This document shows, piece after piece, positions 20,216 to 30,596 of a stretch of 36,044 nt of DNA (position 1 is the first letter of the stretch; every line of letters starts with the position of its first letter). The translations under genes and the position numbers were made by a program. The stretch is from the IMG/VR virus record IMGVR_UViG_3300032286_000872, positions 1 through 36,044 of that record. The stretch is one strand, 5' to 3'. The notes beneath the pieces are model-generated. The model was given only the letters and a program-made list of their open reading frames with translations, did no database searches and had not been told where the DNA came from. This stretch comes from a virus.

Positions 20216-23200
20216 TTAACCTGATTGTCCACGGCTAACCGTTGGTCGTTTTTCAGGTGTGCCTGATGCCCCAACGCCTGGTCTACCTTTTAACACTTCG
20301 TCCGATGCCTTGCCCTTCATTGCATTTGCAAGCTTATCAATAGCTTTATCACTAAAGTCTTGAATAACTGTATTCTGGGAGCGCACCCCTTCGGTATCCG
20401 ACAATAGCGACATTGCTGTTGATAACTTCGAGAACGTCATTTGCTCTCCTGACTTAACGCCAGCAGCGCCCTTAAGCTGTTGAATCAGTTCTTGGTCGGT
20501 TCCTTTAAGACCCATGCCCTTGGCCGTTGTAATTAATTCTTTATCTGTTACGTCTCTATTGATTCCCTTAGATGCATCGACTGCTGCACTATTTAACATT
20601 CTTTTGTAATTAACAGTAGTAAAGTCCGCTGCTGCAACTGCAGCCCCCTTGCCTTTTTCTTGAGCAAGTATATTTTTTCCGCGCTTAAAGTCTCCTGGGT
20701 CTACGCCGGACAACAGATAAGCTGCAGCAGAACCTTCTGCCTCAAGACCAGCCATTCCTGTTGTTAAATCCTTAAACCGCGACATTAAGTTCTTAAGACC
20801 TTCGGCATCTCCCTTTTTAAGAAGAGATTTTGCCTCTGCTTGCATTGTAGAAAAATCTTGTCCCGTTCTTCTTTTAAGTTCTGCGCCGAATGGAGACAAC
20901 TGAGCAGACGACTGAGCCTGCAATTGTCTACGAACATTTGCCGTAGCTGCCTCTGGTGACATTCCTGAAGCAATCTGAGCGCCAACCATTTCACGAGCAA
21001 GACCAGTCATTTTTTTATAATCACCGCCTGCGGACAGTTGCTGTAAAGCTTCTTGAACCTGGACAACATTAGAGCGACTGGCCAAACCAAGACCTGTGCC
21101 CATCGTTAAGCCAGCGCCAGCGCCCGCAAGAACTTTTAAAGTTCCCATAAGTCCAGTGGTGGCTCCTGTGGCACCCGCAAGTCCTGCTAAACCTGACTTA
21201 GCCTCTTCCATATACATCATGGCTGAGCCGCTTGAGCCTCTCATGGCTCCCGTTAACTGAGACAAAAACCCAGCCGCTCCTGATGCCGATTGAATTTTTA
21301 AAGCCTGAGACATTTCCATGGCAGCTTGCGAGAATCTCTGAATAGCTGGAGCACCTTTAAGACCAGCCTCAAATGCCTTGGCAAAAATGTTTTCTAGTTG
21401 TTTGGTGTCGCCTTGTTTGCCAGATACCGCAGAGATACCAAGCACATTTGATGCCATTTGTTCAACAGAGCCAACGCCTGCACGACTTAATCCTAAAAGT
21501 CTATTTGCTCCCTGAGTCGTGCCCGTCATGCCAGCATAAGTATTGTAAATTTGGCCAACTTCTGGGACTGAGTAGCCAAGCCTTGCGTATCTATCAGTTA
21601 TAGCGTTTGCTCTAGCTTCTGGCATATTTTTAAACATCTCAAAGCCAGAGACTGCTGCTCCACCCGCCATAGATGTAGCGGCTGTTCTCATTCTCATTGC
21701 AGCTAGATTTTCATCAATTCCCATTGACAATCTTCTGGCTTGAAATGTCGATAACTCTTCTTGTCTATATTGTTCTTTTAAGTGTTCAACTTCGGCCATT
21801 TTGGCAATTTGTTGACCACCAATTGCCATTTCAGGTGCGCCAGCAAAAGAGGTCCCGCCTTCTTCTAGGCCAGTACGAGTTGTAGCTGCCCTTTGTTGAG
21901 AAGTTTTATAAAGTTGATACCCCTGATATCCTGCATAAATGGCTGACCCTACAGCAAGAGTGCCTCCGACAGCACCACCAAGAAGATTACCAATCCCTGG
22001 AGCAACACTGCCAAGCAAAGTTCCTGCGCCGGCCTTAGCGGCTATTTTTGCCAATTGAGTTTGTATAAGTTGCCGACCGCCTTGACTTGCTAAAAATGTA
22101 CCTAATCCAGCAGCGCCTACGGCCCCTGCTGCGCCGCCAGCTCCTTTGTAAAACTCTTCGTCAACGCGAGCTTTTTCGGCTTGACGGTCTAAGTTGGCGT
22201 AATGAGCAGCTTCGGTTTGAAGTCTACCCCTATTAGCAACTCCAAGGTATTTAAATGTATTTTTTCCAGGAGTTAAAAGATTTCCGTAAGCCCGCAAGAA
22301 TTGTTCGCCAGTTGTTGGCGCAACCTGTGCCATATGTTCTTGATATCTTGCTTGATTTACAGCAACGATATCTCTAGATAAACCTGACCTAACAGAAACA
22401 TCCTGTTCCATTCCCAAGGCTTTAAATCCTTGGTATTCTCCATATCCTTTAAATCCTATTGAAGCTACTTTTGCTAAGCCGCCAACAATAGCTGAAGCTT
22501 TTTCTGACCCAGATAAACCGCCCCACATTTCGCGGAAAGATGGTGGTCCTCCACCAGGGCCACCGCCGCCTCCACCTGGACCGCCGCGTTTAATAAAATC
22601 ATCTAAAGTTTCAGAAAATTGTTCTGCTTTTTGATTAACTTTATTAAAGGTTTTAGCCGCTTGGTCTAATTCTTTAGCAAACTTAGCAAGGTCTTTAGCT
22701 CCTGCTTCTGATGCTTTACCGTATTCATCGGTTGCTCTTTTAAGTGTCTCAGACGCGGCTGCTCTTTCTTGTTCAAACTTTTTAGATACATCTAATAGAA
22801 TTTTTGCTGTAGTATTGGCACTACCAGACAAAATCTTTACGGCCTCTTCGCGCTCTCTCTTAGCTGCCAAATCATTTTGAAAACCAGCTTGACCTGCAAA
22901 TGCAGAGGCAATCCCAATTCCACCGCGAGATAACTGCCATTGGGCGCTAGGGAGCGGCGACCCTAATGGACTACCCATTGGGTTAATATTGGATGGCGGA
23001 ATAGGAGAGCCAGTTCCAATTGAATAGACATTAGACGTAGGGCCGCCGCGAGCTGCCATCAAATCTCTAATTTGAAGAGCTGCCCCTGCTGTAGTAGGGC
23101 CATAAGAATTAGCCGTTTGTCTTTGATGGGCAGCCATCTGTGCTTGCATTTGCACGGTTTGACGTAGCGCGTCATTCATCTTCTGAATTTCTTCGCGCAT

Positions 23201-23251
23201 CTGCCTAATCGGGGCTAATAATTCTGATAAGTCTACGTTTATACGACTCAA
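20216..23251 (-). CDS. Tail tape measure protein, 1011 aa, TTG start; 5' end probably lost to the tnpB insertion
   Basis: The features are typical of a tape measure: long helical, coiled-coil segments (residues 1-50, 125-222), a poly-Gly linker (223-237) and hydrophobic Gly/Ala-rich helices (about 370-390, 405-447 and near 690-730) that may cross the membrane on injection. The rest is Ala/Gln/Gly-rich helix. At about 1.5 A per residue it would set a tail of roughly 150 nm. The present start is TTG at 23251, preceded by GGAG; the frame upstream stays open for only seven codons (DWNGDIS) before a TAA. The tnpB stop is 25 bases before it. A strong SD and a 10-codon ORF lie upstream of tnpB (24471-24510), which suggests that the original start was there. 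Translation today must restart at the TTG. Confidence 0.82.
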   Translation of the reverse strand: MSRINVDLSELLAPIRQMREEIQKMNDALRQTVQMQAQMAAHQRQTANSYGPTTAGAALQIRDLMAARGGPTSNVYSIGTGSPIPPSNINPMGSPLGSPLPSAQWQLSRGGIGIASAFAGQAGFQNDLAAKREREEAVKILSGSANTTAKILLDVSKKFEQERAAASETLKRATDEYGKASEAGAKDLAKFAKELDQAAKTFNKVNQKAEQFSETLDDFIKRGGPGGGGGGPGGGPPSFREMWGGLSGSEKASAIVGGLAKVASIGFKGYGEYQGFKALGMEQDVSVRSGLSRDIVAVNQARYQEHMAQVAPTTGEQFLRAYGNLLTPGKNTFKYLGVANRGRLQTEAAHYANLDRQAEKARVDEEFYKGAGGAAGAVGAAGLGTFLASQGGRQLIQTQLAKIAAKAGAGTLLGSVAPGIGNLLGGAVGGTLAVGSAIYAGYQGYQLYKTSQQRAATTRTGLEEGGTSFAGAPEMAIGGQQIAKMAEVEHLKEQYRQEELSTFQARRLSMGIDENLAAMRMRTAATSMAGGAAVSGFEMFKNMPEARANAITDRYARLGYSVPEVGQIYNTYAGMTGTTQGANRLLGLSRAGVGSVEQMASNVLGISAVSGKQGDTKQLENIFAKAFEAGLKGAPAIQRFSQAAMEMSQALKIQSASGAAGFLSQLTGAMRGSSGSAMMYMEEAKSGLAGLAGATGATTGLMGTLKVLAGAGAGLTMGTGLGLASRSNVVQVQEALQQLSAGGDYKKMTGLAREMVGAQIASGMSPEAATANVRRQLQAQSSAQLSPFGAELKRRTGQDFSTMQAEAKSLLKKGDAEGLKNLMSRFKDLTTGMAGLEAEGSAAAYLLSGVDPGDFKRGKNILAQEKGKGAAVAAADFTTVNYKRMLNSAAVDASKGINRDVTDKELITTAKGMGLKGTDQELIQQLKGAAGVKSGEQMTFSKLSTAMSLLSDTEGVRSQNTVIQDFSDKAIDKLANAMKGKASDEVLKGRPGVGASGTPEKRPTVSRGQSG

Positions 23252-23276
23252 GCTGATGTCTCCGTTCCAATCTTAA

Positions 23277-23290
23277 TTAACAATTGTTAA
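23277..23290. repeat. 14-bp perfect palindrome at the tnpB stop codon
   Basis: TTAACAATTGTTAA overlaps the last codons and stop of tnpB. It could be the subterminal hairpin of the element's right end or part of the guide-RNA scaffold, which in this family comes from the 3' end of tnpB. Confidence 0.5.
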
Positions 23291-24449
23291 CAAAATCTTC
23301 CTGCTTCAACGGCTTGCTAACGCTTACCTCTGCAGGCATAACTTCGGGACAACAAGTCCCTAGCTTTTTCAAGTTTAGTGCAGCATTCAAGTCTCTATCT
23401 ATCGAGAATCCACAATCTTCACAATTGTAAGTTCTTTCAGAGAGCTTAAGCTCTTCCTTAATGCACCCACAATTGCTACAGGTCTTGGAACTAGGATAGA
23501 ATTTTCCTGCAACAATTAATTTTTTCCCATACATTTCGCATTTCTGCGACAAAATAGTCCTAAACATTCCCCATCCAATTTCAGATATGGCTCTGGACAG
23601 CTTCCTGTTCTTCACCATATTAGCTACAGATAGGTCTTCAATAACTAAGACATCGTAATTCTTCACAAGTTTGGTTGTCGCTTGCTGGATGATGTCTTTT
23701 CTCTTAAGTCTAATTTTTCTGTGTATTTTTGCTAACTTAACTCTTGCCTTTTCTCTATTCTTACTTTCTTTTTGTTTTCTAGCAAAGGCTCTTTGTTGCC
23801 TACGCAGTTTTTTAAGATTTTGCTTAAGCAACTTAGCGTTTTCTATAATAGTTCCGTCAGACATAACTGCTAAAGTCTTGATACCCAAGTCAATCCCAAC
23901 TGTCTTGCCTGTCTTAGGTAGCTCTTGAACCGCTGTATCTACTGAGACTGAGGCGTACCACCTGTCTACATCTTTAGATACTGTATAATTCATAATTTTG
24001 CCGAAAAACCTTAATTGTTCTGCCATCTTAATGCCAGATTTAAGATTAGGAACGTAAAATAGTCTCCCTTTAATGTGCTTTCCTGCGTTATCAATATAGA
24101 AAGACTGCTTAGAATCTCTCTTAGACTTAAATCTAGGCTTACCTACTTTTCTGCTGCTTTTTCTCTTCAGTGATTTAAAGTAAGAGCTATGAGCTTGTCC
24201 TGCATTCATAATTGCCGCTTGCGGCGCACACTTAGTAACTTCTAGCATCCAAGGGAATTGTTCTCTTTTTATGAAATTTAGTTGTTTTCTCAGCTTGCCT
24301 TCGTTGGGCTTAAGTCCTTCCTTGTATTGCTTTTCCCACTCATTGAGTGCCCAGTTCCAAGCAAAACGAGCCGTACCGGCTGCTTTGCTTAAAGCAACCT
24401 CCTGCTCTTTGGTTGGAAATAGTCTAATTTTGTGAGATTTAATAGTCAT
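23277..24449 (-). CDS. tnpB: TnpB, RNA-guided RuvC nuclease of IS200/IS605-type element, 390 aa
   Basis: The N-terminal part (KIRLFPTKEQEVALSKAAGT, then RFAWNWAL) and central region match TnpB of IS605/IS607 elements. The RuvC residues are present: Asp187 in TVGIDLGIKTLAV, Glu271 in VLVIEDLS, and Asp351/Asp353 in SIDRDLNAALN. The zinc ribbon has Cys324, 327, 343 and 346 (CSNC and CEDC). The C-terminal PLKQEDF resembles the usual KQE ending. It is full length for the family, so probably active. TnpB cuts DNA using an RNA made from the 3' end of its own gene plus flanking sequence; here that flank is the tape measure gene. No TnpA transposase is present, so the element cannot move alone. It breaks the tail operon between chaperone and tape measure genes. 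Confidence 0.93.
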   Translation of the reverse strand: MTIKSHKIRLFPTKEQEVALSKAAGTARFAWNWALNEWEKQYKEGLKPNEGKLRKQLNFIKREQFPWMLEVTKCAPQAAIMNAGQAHSSYFKSLKRKSSRKVGKPRFKSKRDSKQSFYIDNAGKHIKGRLFYVPNLKSGIKMAEQLRFFGKIMNYTVSKDVDRWYASVSVDTAVQELPKTGKTVGIDLGIKTLAVMSDGTIIENAKLLKQNLKKLRRQQRAFARKQKESKNREKARVKLAKIHRKIRLKRKDIIQQATTKLVKNYDVLVIEDLSVANMVKNRKLSRAISEIGWGMFRTILSQKCEMYGKKLIVAGKFYPSSKTCSNCGCIKEELKLSERTYNCEDCGFSIDRDLNAALNLKKLGTCCPEVMPAEVSVSKPLKQEDFVNNC

Positions 24450-24455
24450 ATTAGT

Positions 24456-24484
24456 ATTTTATATTATCCATTAAGATTTGCCAA
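24456..24484 (-). promoter_or_regulatory. Candidate promoter of tnpB
   Basis: On the minus strand, TTGGCA (24479-24484) and TAAAAT (24456-24461) are 17 bases apart; each matches five of six sigma70 consensus bases. The expected start of transcription is at or next to the tnpB ATG (24449), and no SD precedes that ATG, so a leaderless mRNA is possible. Read-through from the tail operon could also express the gene. Confidence 0.4.
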
Positions 24485-24503
24485 GTAATCGGCCACTAGT
24501 CAT
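24471..24503 (-). pseudogene. Ten-codon ORF with strong SD: probable severed 5' end of the tape measure gene
   Basis: The ORF ATG ACT AGT GGC CGA TTA CTT GGC AAA TCT TAA encodes MTSGRLLGKS. It has a strong SD (GAGGAG, 24505-24510) and starts 24 bases after the stop of the upstream chaperone gene, the usual spacing in this operon. A start this well formed would normally belong to a real gene, and the next one due is the tape measure. The tape measure frame beyond tnpB extends upstream of its TTG as DWNGDIS, which could be the other side of the break. Confidence 0.5.
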
Positions 24504-24527
24504 TCTCCTCAGCTCTTATTTTAAGGC

Positions 24528-25055
24528 TTACTCGTCTTTTTCTTCTTTAGTGGCAGGGCGTTGAGCCTCGGACAATTGACGGTTTAATTCTAGGATAGGG
24601 GTATAGTCAAGAAGGTTATATCCACCTAGCTCTTCGCTCTTAGGTTTCCACCAATCGGGAGCCTTAACAATATGGGCGTTAAGCACCGCAAGCATTTGAA
24701 TAAACTCAGCTTGTGGGTCAATGTCCTTAAGTTCAGGCAAAATACCTTCAATAACGCGGCGCACTGCTTCATCGCTAGCCACCAAGGTCACCTTATCTTT
24801 ATCATCAAGACCATTAGCTACCTCATCGTGGATGTTCTGTAGAGCATCCTTGATACCTGCTAAGAGGCTAGGTACACTGTAAGATGGTGGGCGGCGCAGG
24901 CCAGTTGAGAGTCTATTAGCTACGCGGGATGACTCAGTCATGTCTCTATGAGAAAGGAACTTCTTAAGCTCAAACACGCCTTGGTACTTTTCGCCTGTTG
25001 TCGTACCAACAACATCCAACTCAATAAAAATAACAGGATTAAGTGGACTGCTCAT
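24528..25055 (-). CDS. Tail assembly chaperone-like protein, 175 aa
   Basis: An upstream in-frame ATG at 25079 has no SD, while the ATG at 25055 has AGGGAG 6 bases upstream, so the start is placed at 25055 (MSSPLNPV). Features include a beta-rich start (VIFIELDVVGTTTGEKYQG, VFELKKFLSHRD), a helical middle and the segment VLNAHIVKAPDWWKPKSEELGG. That last pattern, a helix then aP.WW and an acidic/Gly turn, is seen in chaperones that coat tape measure proteins in large phages. It overlaps the end of the 127-aa gene by 17 bases in another frame, and the tape measure originally followed. It probably acts in the cytoplasm during tail assembly and is not kept in the virion. Confidence 0.6.
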   Translation of the reverse strand: MSSPLNPVIFIELDVVGTTTGEKYQGVFELKKFLSHRDMTESSRVANRLSTGLRRPPSYSVPSLLAGIKDALQNIHDEVANGLDDKDKVTLVASDEAVRRVIEGILPELKDIDPQAEFIQMLAVLNAHIVKAPDWWKPKSEELGGYNLLDYTPILELNRQLSEAQRPATKEEKDE

Positions 25056-27629: not shown

Positions 27630-27665
27630 TTAATACATAGAGAGATTTTACTCTCTATGTATTAA
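27630..27665 (-). other. Long hairpin between sheath and tube genes
   Basis: TTAATACATAGAGAG and CTCTCTATGTATTAA form a perfect 15-bp stem with a 6-base loop, overlapping the sheath stop codon. There is no U-run after it on the minus strand; the SD of the tube gene follows. It is likely an mRNA stability or processing element that lets sheath and tube levels differ. Confidence 0.7.
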
Positions 27666-30481
27666 AGATTTCTTGTTGCTGTTACATCAAGTGAAATAAA
27701 TTCGAGAGCTTCAGCAGGGCGCACTTGGACTTGAACTGCATAACCATTGCCAAGGTTTGTGACTAGAGGTGAGCGATTGAAAGAAACAATTGCTCCGCTG
27801 GTAACAAACGAACCAAGAACATTAACAACAGTCGATGCAACTTCAGCCGTAGTAACGTCTGTAGTACGCTCACCGATGTAGTTCTCAAGAACGCTTCTAA
27901 GGGTCTGAATCATTTCAATAAAGATGAATGATACGTTATTGCGCTCATAAACCCAAGCTTTCGGGTCATTGATGCGGCTACGGGTTGAGAGGTCTGGAGA
28001 CACAAGACGGAGTCCTGCACCTTCAACAACGCCCATAGACAATAGGCCAGCTTCAATAGCTTCGTCGAGCATAGCTTTACTTGCTGGGTCGAAATCGCGC
28101 ATAAGTGTGTCTGAGTAGATTGAAGACTCAGGAATATGCTTAACGTCGAGGACGTTAAATGACTTACGGAGCAAGGGAGTTCCAAGGATTGCTTGTGAAC
28201 GTCCTGCAGCCATACAGCACTGAAGCATCCATGGGAGGAACCACTGAGCATTGCCGTCTGCACCTGTAGCGCGGGCAAGCTGGAATGCCATAGAGACGTT
28301 TTCGTAGTTAAGAGCCTGAGCCTTAGCTTTAGAGTCTTCAAACGAGCCGAAGAATGAAGCTAGACCAAAGCGCTCACGACGGATAGAGCTTGACCATCCA
28401 GTAGCAACGTGTGCCCTAAGAGCCGCATGAACTGAATCAATAGAGTAGGTTGACTCTGGTTCAGTTAGACCGTCGGCAATGTCAAGATATGCGTCGCGTG
28501 AGAACAGCGGAAGAACTTGAACAGTTGGAATCTTAAGACCTACATCAAGAGCAGCTTGAATGTCTGCATTTGAAGTTGCGCCCTTAGCTCCGCCCGCCAA
28601 ATAGCTCTGCGATGCTTCACCTGCTGGCAAGCCTGCTTTAACAGCGCGAGCACCAGCAACAAAGTCAATAATAGAAACAGTTGCAGCAAAGAACGAAGTC
28701 CATGCTGAATAGTCATTTTTAAGGCGACCAGCAAAAGATTGCTCTGAAGTCAATGATTTACAAGCAACTTCATCAACCATATCAAGAACAGAAGGGGCTG
28801 CTGAGTTAAGGCCAGCGTCAACAACACGAGCAGACCATCCTGACTGAGCACTGATGTGGTCGGCAAGAGCAGCTAGCGTTGGATACTTGCCTGTTGGGAA
28901 TGAAATTTCTACTGTATCAGCAACAAGCTTCATGCGACGGTTAGAGTCAATAGAGACTTTAGCGACTGCCGCTGCTCCTGAATAACTAACTTCAAGAACA
29001 ACTTTACCGCCAACTTTGTCTGATGGGAATCTTTCGCCACTAACAGTATTGAGGGTGTTTAGTGAAACTTGAGCTTCTTTTGATGAAACTGTCTTCTTAG
29101 CAACAACTGATGAGCTGACTGCAGAAGGAACTGCTTGTAAAAGAGCCTCGTTGCCTGCAACAGCGACTGAAGAAACTGCAGCAGCGGAGCCGCCGTCAAG
29201 TCTCTTAAGAACTACTGAAGAGGGAGAAGCTGACATGACTACATGGAGGCCGACGTTGCCTTTAGAAGCACCTGCAAGTTGTGACCCAGGCGAGACGTAA
29301 ACAACATCACCAAGTTTTGGAACTGCAACCCAAACTGCATTAGCTCCTAGAGAGACAGATAATTGGTCTGAAGAAGCGCTAGCTGAAACTGTAGCGAACG
29401 AAGCATTAGCTGCATTGAGTAAGCTTGAGCGGGCTGACATGCGAGCAAGAGCCGAAACTCCTAGGAGAGAAGCTGATGCTGCGGCCAATTCAAGAGAAGC
29501 GCCTGCGCCTTCTTTAGCGGCTTCAACAACGGATACGCTAATAGGGTTAACAAAGATAACTTCGCCTGTAGCGTAAGTGAATGGAGCTGTACCAGCGGTG
29601 ACTGGAGTAGAGACTGCTTCAGGAGCAGCCCAAGCAACAGCGGCTGAACCAGCGTTGTCCATTTGACGGACTTTTTCAAGAGTTACAGTTGTTGGGGTAA
29701 CAGCCTTAATAAGATAAGTACCGATGTTTTTATCAGTAGCTCCGATAAGGCCAGAGCTATGAGGAATAACGGCGACTTCGCCTACTTTTGGTAGGTTACT
29801 CCAAGCTAGGTCACTGGAGACAACGACATCGTTGCCGGAGACGGATAGAGTCAAGTCAGCACCAGTTGGGACTACGTCTTGGAGACTTCCACCAGAGACA
29901 GAAGCCTTAGCGCCCAAGAGCGTTGACAAGTTAGAAGCAAAAGAAGCTACTCCCGCAAAAGAAAGAGCTGCTGTTCCAGCTTCTTTGACGCCGGAGACTG
30001 CTGCTTCCATATTGACAGAGACAGGAAGAACCTGAAATGAAAGCGAAGGAAGGACTTCAGCAGAAGCCACGATTTGCGACTTAACAAAGTTTCCTGATTC
30101 ACCAAACTTAGTGCCAACAACCTTACCGTAAGCAGCAGGAGAAGCGATTAGCTTTTCTGCACGGGTAGCTTGGTTGGTCTGTTGAACATAAACGCGGCCT
30201 ACTGAGCCAGTAAAGACAGCAGATGGCTGTACAGTAAAGAGCTGACGAGCGGCGTCAACGATAGGGCCAGACGTAAAGAACGCCTGCATTGTAGGGTAAT
30301 CACTAAAGAAAGCTGAGGTTGGGTCGAGCATATTGCCAGGAACGCCCTCAGAAGCCTCGCCAATAAGAAGAATATTACGAGCTGATGCAACTACATTGAG
30401 TAGTGAATCTTGCACTTTAAAGACTGAGTAAACACCGGGGGTGACAACTCTGCTACCGCCGACTGAAAAAGCTATTGTCAT
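27662..30481 (-). CDS. Contractile tail sheath protein, 939 aa
   Basis: The longer frame opens at 30571, but the ATG at 30481 has SD AGGAG and starts the sheath pattern MTIAFSVGGSRVVTPGVYSV, so it is chosen. Conserved parts: ASARNILLIGEASEGVPGN, SVGRVYVQQTNQATRAEK and FGESGNFVKSQIV. Near the C-terminus are VVNVLGSFVTSGAIVSFNRS and QVQVRPAEALEFISLDVTA, the handshake region linking subunits. Residues about 160-600 are a large Ala/Ser/Val-rich insert with two related beta modules (PKVGEVAVIPHSSGLIGATD and PKLGDVVYVSPGSQLAGASK). Typical sheaths are 380-700 aa (T4 gp18 is 659). The insert probably decorates the outer face. Sheath contraction drives the tube through the envelope. Confidence 0.9.
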   Translation of the reverse strand: MTIAFSVGGSRVVTPGVYSVFKVQDSLLNVVASARNILLIGEASEGVPGNMLDPTSAFFSDYPTMQAFFTSGPIVDAARQLFTVQPSAVFTGSVGRVYVQQTNQATRAEKLIASPAAYGKVVGTKFGESGNFVKSQIVASAEVLPSLSFQVLPVSVNMEAAVSGVKEAGTAALSFAGVASFASNLSTLLGAKASVSGGSLQDVVPTGADLTLSVSGNDVVVSSDLAWSNLPKVGEVAVIPHSSGLIGATDKNIGTYLIKAVTPTTVTLEKVRQMDNAGSAAVAWAAPEAVSTPVTAGTAPFTYATGEVIFVNPISVSVVEAAKEGAGASLELAAASASLLGVSALARMSARSSLLNAANASFATVSASASSDQLSVSLGANAVWVAVPKLGDVVYVSPGSQLAGASKGNVGLHVVMSASPSSVVLKRLDGGSAAAVSSVAVAGNEALLQAVPSAVSSSVVAKKTVSSKEAQVSLNTLNTVSGERFPSDKVGGKVVLEVSYSGAAAVAKVSIDSNRRMKLVADTVEISFPTGKYPTLAALADHISAQSGWSARVVDAGLNSAAPSVLDMVDEVACKSLTSEQSFAGRLKNDYSAWTSFFAATVSIIDFVAGARAVKAGLPAGEASQSYLAGGAKGATSNADIQAALDVGLKIPTVQVLPLFSRDAYLDIADGLTEPESTYSIDSVHAALRAHVATGWSSSIRRERFGLASFFGSFEDSKAKAQALNYENVSMAFQLARATGADGNAQWFLPWMLQCCMAAGRSQAILGTPLLRKSFNVLDVKHIPESSIYSDTLMRDFDPASKAMLDEAIEAGLLSMGVVEGAGLRLVSPDLSTRSRINDPKAWVYERNNVSFIFIEMIQTLRSVLENYIGERTTDVTTAEVASTVVNVLGSFVTSGAIVSFNRSPLVTNLGNGYAVQVQVRPAEALEFISLDVTATRNL
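29192..29869 (-). repeat. Two related beta modules inside the sheath protein
   Basis: Modules at about 29666-29869 and 29192-29398 share the pattern W..(L/V)PK(V/L)G(E/D)V..., then GA..(K)N(I/V)G...V..A.P..V.L(E/K)(K/R). They look like an ancient internal duplication; an Ala-rich helical segment separates them. Confidence 0.65.
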
Positions 30482-30519
30482 ATCTATGGCTCCTGAGTTT
30501 GTGGCCAATACGCTACAGA

Positions 30520-30550
30520 CGGATTTTATCAGATTTTTAACAAAAATCCG
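30520..30550 (-). other. Dyad in the sheath mRNA leader
   Basis: Between the upstream gene and the sheath ATG are 115 non-coding bases, by far the longest leader in the operon. CGGATTTT (30520-30527) and AAAATCCG (30543-30550) can pair over 8 bp, and an alternative GATTTTT/AAAAATC stem lies within the same stretch. I found no convincing -35/-10 pair. The leader may hold a phage-specific promoter or a translational control element for sheath. Confidence 0.4.
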
Positions 30551-30596
30551 AATCTTATTGAGTTGTAGCAATTTTGAGGTAGTTGTGCTAATAAAA

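What the first reader, a model, noticed from the sequence alone, without database searches (positions are those of the whole stretch)
23249..24510. A TnpB element appears to have split the 5' end of the tape measure gene
Seen: chaperone stop at 24528-24530, then a strong SD (GAGGAG) and ATG at 24503 opening a 10-codon ORF (MTSGRLLGKS). Then tnpB, and 25 bases after its stop a TTG start for the tape measure, whose frame extends back as DWNGDIS before a stop. A strong SD and ATG leading nowhere, with correct operon spacing, is what a broken gene start looks like. Inference: the phage survives because translation restarts at TTG, so the essential tail gene now depends on sequence at the element's edge. 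Because TnpB guide RNAs take their guide from flanking DNA, the guide here would match the tape measure 5' end. It could then cut element-free rival phages at this locus.
Basis: partly seen in the sequence, partly recalled or inferred. Interest (0 to 1): 0.75.

Follow-up and report, generated by a model that had tools for sequence, protein, structure and literature searches.

The report
TnpB element inside phage ribosome-binding site
A small RNA-guided nuclease element has landed in the ribosome-binding site just ahead of a phage tail gene, without breaking the protein, and related elements on many phages seem to favour the same kind of spot because the sequence they insert into looks like a ribosome-binding site.

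Summary
The sequence description is correct, except that the GAGGAG before ATG 24503 sits only 1 nt from it, which is too close for normal initiation. A TnpB element does sit between a small upstream gene and the putative tape measure gene. It did not split the coding sequence. The element split the ribosome-binding site.

Its right end is a conserved IS607-type guide-RNA scaffold ending exactly at GGAACGG (23262), found by a covariance model built without the window. IS607 elements insert at GG. The element's terminal GG plus the flanking AG restores GGAG 8 nt before TTG, with pairing strength inside the relatives' range. The predicted guide (23261-23242) spans the RBS spacer, the start codon and the first codons. 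No held relative carries a matching target, so cutting of rivals is unsupported.

Beyond the window, 9 of 50 viral IS607-type elements abut a start codon at +5 to +8, against 2.4% after random GG. Rebuilt targets are Shine-Dalgarno sequences. Named phages agree. The left boundary is probably 24507 but not settled.

The parts
23277..24449 (-). tnpB: 390-aa RNA-guided nuclease; RuvC D187, E271, D353 and zinc-ribbon C324/C327/C343/C346 intact
   Evidence: Pfam PF01385, PF07282, PF12323; NCBIfam guided_TnpB 315.8 bits, cut-off 100; alignment to ISDra2 TnpB 8bf8; residues read
23262..23352 (-). Right-end RNA (reRNA) scaffold, overlapping the tnpB 3' end, ending GGAACGG
   Evidence: Model R1 from 24 other IS607-type right ends: 26.3 bits, E 5.8e-6 in 2 kb, next best 4.2 bits, full model 1-135, ends at 23262
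23242..23261 (-). Predicted guide: AGACATCAGC-TTG-AGTCGTA (RBS spacer, start codon, first codons)
   Evidence: Begins right after the conserved scaffold end, where flanks of about 30 relatives stop being conserved; guide rule for IS607 from PMC10711439
23260..23263 (-). Restored Shine-Dalgarno GGAG: GG from the element, AG from the phage; 8 nt before TTG
   Evidence: Sequence; duplex energy with anti-SD -6.6 kcal/mol vs -5.9 to -9.2 in relatives
20216..23251 (-). Putative tape measure gene, native TTG start at 23251
   Evidence: Nine relatives start at the homologous TTG/GTG, none with an upstream in-frame start
24507..24510 (-). GAGG: left half of the split Shine-Dalgarno and probable target motif; favoured left boundary just after 24507
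   Evidence: Matches the GAGG left flanks of related elements; alignment to L001 best here
24493..24494 (-). Alternative left boundary (AGTGG)
   Evidence: Best against L017, worse left-end score
24451..24503 (-). Two tiny ORFs (10 and 6 codons) with overlapping or adjacent stop-start signals leading to tnpB
   Evidence: Sequence; function inferred

Best explanation
A TnpB-only element of IS607 type inserted at a GG inside the Shine-Dalgarno sequence ahead of the putative tape measure gene of an uncultured contractile-tailed phage (shown by comparison with element-free relatives and by the conserved right end). Serine TnpA, absent here and presumably supplied in trans when it moved, recombines at GG (known for IS607, PMC6188088; inferred here). 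Because the element itself ends in GG and the phage flank continues AG, the GGAG motif 8 nt before TTG is rebuilt and the protein keeps its native start (shown as sequence; translation itself inferred). The 3' part of the tnpB transcript carries a reRNA scaffold ending at the element border, so the guide is the RBS spacer, start codon and first codons of the gene (predicted). TnpB loaded with it would cut the same site in otherwise identical phages lacking the element and so favour the element when two phages share a cell, like a homing nuclease (inference from known TnpB biology, PMC11870625). The location follows from the target motif, GAGG, being a Shine-Dalgarno sequence; selection against damaging insertions would add to it.
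For: Empty sites in L001/2/4; all nine relatives lack any start upstream of the homologous TTG/GTG; no tnpB or reRNA elsewhere in their contigs. R1 model hit ending exactly at 23262. Right ends of some 30 IS607-type relatives, several with serine TnpA upstream, end in AACGG followed by unconserved flank. Left ends GG|NNNN|TAACAGTT with GAGG flanks. IS607 inserts at GG with no duplication (PMC6188088). SD pairing kept within the relatives' range. General habit: 9/50 elements with ATG at +5..+8, p 2e-6 against random GG, 9e-4 against random GAGG; rebuilt sites such as AGGAGG|GTTTTA-ATG and GAGGAGG|TGTTGACA-ATG, all ahead of different genes. Named phages: BE25 against element-free phiIPLA-C1C shows AAAAGG|ATGAAG split with right end CAACGG; in Twort the left flank AGGAGG and right flank GAATCAT-ATG are read directly.
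Against: The left end does not score as a known IS607 left end at either candidate GG (-6.9 and -13.3 against 6-16 for nearly all true ends; one true end scores -2.4). No tnpA is present. The exact empty allele of this lineage is not in IMG/VR. The five bases after the favoured GG (AGAAT) also match L001, a coincidence under this boundary. NCBIfam family cut-offs for IS607 or IS200 TnpB are not reached. The +5..+8 window was chosen after seeing the list, and the excess over AGGAGG sites is not significant (p 0.09).
Confidence: 0.82

Rival explanations
1. The element split the true 5' end: in this lineage the gene began at ATG 24503 as MTSGDISLSRIN..., and the insertion at AGTGG (24493) left the 10-codon ORF as the severed start.
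For: Joining flanks at 24493 gives ATG-ACT-AGT-GGA-GAC-ATC-AGC-TTG in frame; TAGTGGAG is also present in L017, and alignment to L017 is best here (101.5 against 95.0 for a cut at 24505).
Against: No relative has such an extension; ATG 24503 has a 1-nt SD spacer; the left-end score and flank motif are worse than at 24507; the intergenic stretch would be 48 nt against 33-41 in relatives.
Confidence: 0.15
2. An immobile, domesticated TnpB (regulator or defence nuclease) kept by the phage at this place rather than a recent selfish insertion.
For: No tnpA and no recognisable left end; catalytic residues intact.
Against: Absent from all nine relatives; scaffold and terminal GG intact; the guide matches only its own insertion site in the window.
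Confidence: 0.08
3. Insertion near start codons is only survivorship: elements land at any GG and those within genes are lost.
For: The excess shrinks as the comparison motif becomes more SD-like.
Against: Left flanks are GAGG-rich beyond GG alone, and known IS607 preference is (G)GG, with TAM AGGAG or GAGGG in one class.
Confidence: 0.3

Closest known systems
IS607-family elements with TnpB (IS607, ISXfa1; PMC6188088, PMC10711439)
   Same: GG at the right border, reRNA scaffold that includes the fixed border nucleotides, guide from the flank, TnpB with RuvC and zinc ribbon
   Different: No serine TnpA here; left end not recognisable; TnpB about 44% identical to those with tnpA
RAGATH-18-associated IS607 TnpBs (ISFba1; PMC11061315)
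   Same: IS607-type TnpB with a G-rich, SD-like target motif (AGGAG or GAGGG); also on phages (Staphylococcus phage 110)
   Different: Their reRNA lies wholly downstream of tnpB and matches RAGATH-18; here the scaffold overlaps the tnpB 3' end and Rfam finds no RAGATH-18
IS200/IS605 TnpB (ISDra2, PDB 8bf8)
   Same: Same protein fold family and catalytic residues
   Different: ISDra2-type elements use AT-rich motifs and Y1 TnpA; here the border is GG and relatives carry serine TnpA
TnpB gene drive in plasmids (PMC11870625)
   Same: Guide records the empty site; cutting favours element-bearing replicons
   Different: Shown for IS200/IS605 on plasmids; only inferred here for a phage

Membership tests
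RNA-guided TnpB nucleases | TnpB domains with RuvC D-E-D and zinc ribbon | tested here: met
RNA-guided TnpB nucleases | Guide RNA made from the 3' end, with nuclease activity | not testable with these tools
   Scaffold homology only
IS607 family | Right end / reRNA of IS607 type ending in AACGG | tested here: met
   R1 hit to 23262
IS607 family | Insertion at GG without target duplication | tested here: inconclusive
   GG at the right border; left border 24507 or 24493, no exact empty allele
IS607 family | IS607-type left end | tested here: not met
   Scores -6.9 and -13.3 against 6-16 for nearly all true ends
IS607 family | Serine transposase TnpA | tested here: not met
   No ORF between 24530 and 24449 or after tnpB; so filed as an IS607-type TnpB-only element, not a complete IS
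RAGATH-18 TnpB | RAGATH-18 RNA next to tnpB | tested here: not met
   Rfam scan of 22900-24900
Split-gene hypothesis | Element-free relatives with the MTSG N-terminus | tested here: not met

The most novel reading that the evidence does not exclude
IS607-type TnpB elements on phages use a target motif that is in effect the Shine-Dalgarno sequence, so they insert at translation starts across many gene types, and their guides systematically record start-codon regions of phage genes, letting them home between co-infecting phages at little or no cost to the target gene.
Probability: 0.4. Interest if true: 0.68.

Novelty: new variant of a known kind. Interest (0 to 1): 0.5.

Why it matters
It explains how a nuclease element can sit directly ahead of an essential phage tail gene without harm: its terminal GG becomes part of the rebuilt ribosome-binding site. 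If the Shine-Dalgarno habit holds, insertion-site choice, guide content and tolerance by the host phage of these TnpB elements follow from one short motif, and hundreds of phage tnpB loci become testable predictions of guide and target. No paper in the held library links TnpB or IS607 insertion to Shine-Dalgarno sites; the library is incomplete.

Tried and rejected
Rfam scan for a known RNA family: nothing. A right-end pattern scan of viral contigs gave mostly chance matches. Exact empty-allele pattern: no hit. IS605-type reading (AT-rich motif at the left edge) dropped once relatives showed serine TnpA and AACGG borders. RNA folding alone is weak (z -1.37), so the scaffold claim rests on the covariance model. 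Named-phage search for the tail gene: no match; the sheath has only remote matches, Myxococcus phage Mx1 at 31% best.

Full report
The observation. Every coordinate in the finding is right. One descriptive point is not: GAGGAG (24510-24505) is separated from ATG 24503 by a single base, too close for a normal start. The ATG does not end in nothing; MTSGRLLGKS ends in TAATG, which opens MDNIKY, whose stop TAA is one base before the tnpB ATG. This could carry ribosomes to tnpB, which has almost no Shine-Dalgarno of its own (-3.1 kcal/mol), but that is inference.

Was the gene split? Relatives of the 1011-aa protein were found in IMG/VR: L001/L002/L004 (85% identical, the same junction, one lineage), L003/L005 (63%) and L017/L018/L019/L189 (about 75% over the first 72 residues). 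None has tnpB at this site, and none has tnpB or its RNA elsewhere in the held contigs. The closest read ...GCTGAGGAGAATCAGC-TTG-AGTCGC. In all nine the gene starts at the homologous TTG or GTG, with an in-frame stop shortly upstream and no other start between. The insertion lies in the ribosome-binding region, not in the coding sequence.

What the element is. The tnpB product has all three catalytic residues and the zinc ribbon. Its closest relatives with a known companion gene sit behind a serine transposase, the mark of IS607. About thirty of them share a right end in which GAAGCAGGAA and a hairpin are followed by AACGG and then unconserved flank. A covariance model built from 24 such ends, the window left out, hits 23352-23262 with 26.3 bits (E 5.8e-6 in 2 kb; next best 4.2 bits) and ends exactly at GGAACGG. 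The same model hits right behind most of 75 viral tnpB genes. IS607 elements insert at GG without duplicating the target (PMC6188088), and the fixed border base belongs to the reRNA scaffold (PMC10711439). The guide should therefore start at 23261: AGACATCAGC-TTG-AGTCGTA.

The left border is less sure. Two GG sites fit. 24507 (TGAGG) has the family's flank motif, the better left-end score and the best alignment to L001; 24493 (AGTGG) aligns better with L017. Neither resembles a functional left end, so the element may now be unable to move. I put about 0.75 on 24507. Both give the same right flank, restored GGAG and guide.

How the tail gene survives. The element's terminal GG joins the flank's AG, giving GGAG 8 nt before TTG. 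Pairing with the anti-Shine-Dalgarno is -6.6 kcal/mol, against -9.2 in the presumed empty allele and -5.9 to -9.2 in relatives. In four of five other elements whose empty site could be rebuilt the motif falls to about -3, so the present case is unusually gentle, as expected ahead of an essential gene (inference).

Rivals. The best match of the guide in any relative has five mismatches, four of them at positions 1-4; single mismatches in positions 1-13 already impair an IS607 TnpB (PMC11061315). None of the known element-free relatives should be cut. Cutting of near-identical phages in a shared cell remains plausible, by analogy with the plasmid gene drive (PMC11870625).

A wider pattern. Among 50 distinct viral IS607-type elements, 9 have the ATG of a 60-codon or longer ORF 5-8 nt after the right end, six at exactly +7. 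The rate after random GG in the same contigs is 2.4%, after GAGG 5.2%, after AGGAGG 11%; the excess is strong against the first two and not significant against the last, as expected if the target motif is itself a Shine-Dalgarno sequence. The offset window was chosen after seeing the list. Rebuilt empty sites are textbook ribosome-binding sites ahead of different genes. In named phages, Sepunavirus BE25 against element-free phiIPLA-C1C shows an exact empty site at AAAAGG|ATGAAG, and Twort has AGGAGG on the left and GAATCAT-ATG on the right. In BE25 the next start codon lies about 12 nt downstream, so that insertion proves the GG border rather than the start-codon spacing. These staphylococcal elements belong to the RAGATH-18 class, whose measured motif is AGGAG or GAGGG.

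Verdict. A real insertion, correctly located and partly misread. The element is a new TnpB-only case of IS607 type; the interest lies in the Shine-Dalgarno site and its apparent generality.

Noticed in passing
L087:4633-4840 (minus): A degenerate tnpB 3' fragment with an intact IS607-type right end stops 9 nt before the ATG of a phage gene next to head genes (MAVERIA...), adding ATG-GAA-CGG in frame: a second element edge at a phage gene start, without a nuclease.
   Followed up: partly
L198, L199, L200 at about 2501-2551: Klebsiella phages FBKp34 and KP13-16 and Salmonella phage KE23 carry a stretch like the reRNA core upstream of their tnpB rather than downstream; model R1 does not report it.
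   Followed up: partly
L279 just upstream of 1501: A second right-end-like sequence (ATCAGTAACGG) directly precedes tnpB, as if one element had inserted behind another.
   Followed up: no
L286:1074-1085 and about 2483-2489; window 24508-24502 and 23263-23256: Bases after the GG resemble each other at both borders (GGATGAA twice in BE25; GGAGAAT and GGAGACAT in the window), more than a 2-base core would give; chance or a longer homology requirement is undecided.
   Followed up: no
window 27662-30571: Unusually long tail sheath ORF (969 aa); only its second half matches sheath families.
   Followed up: no
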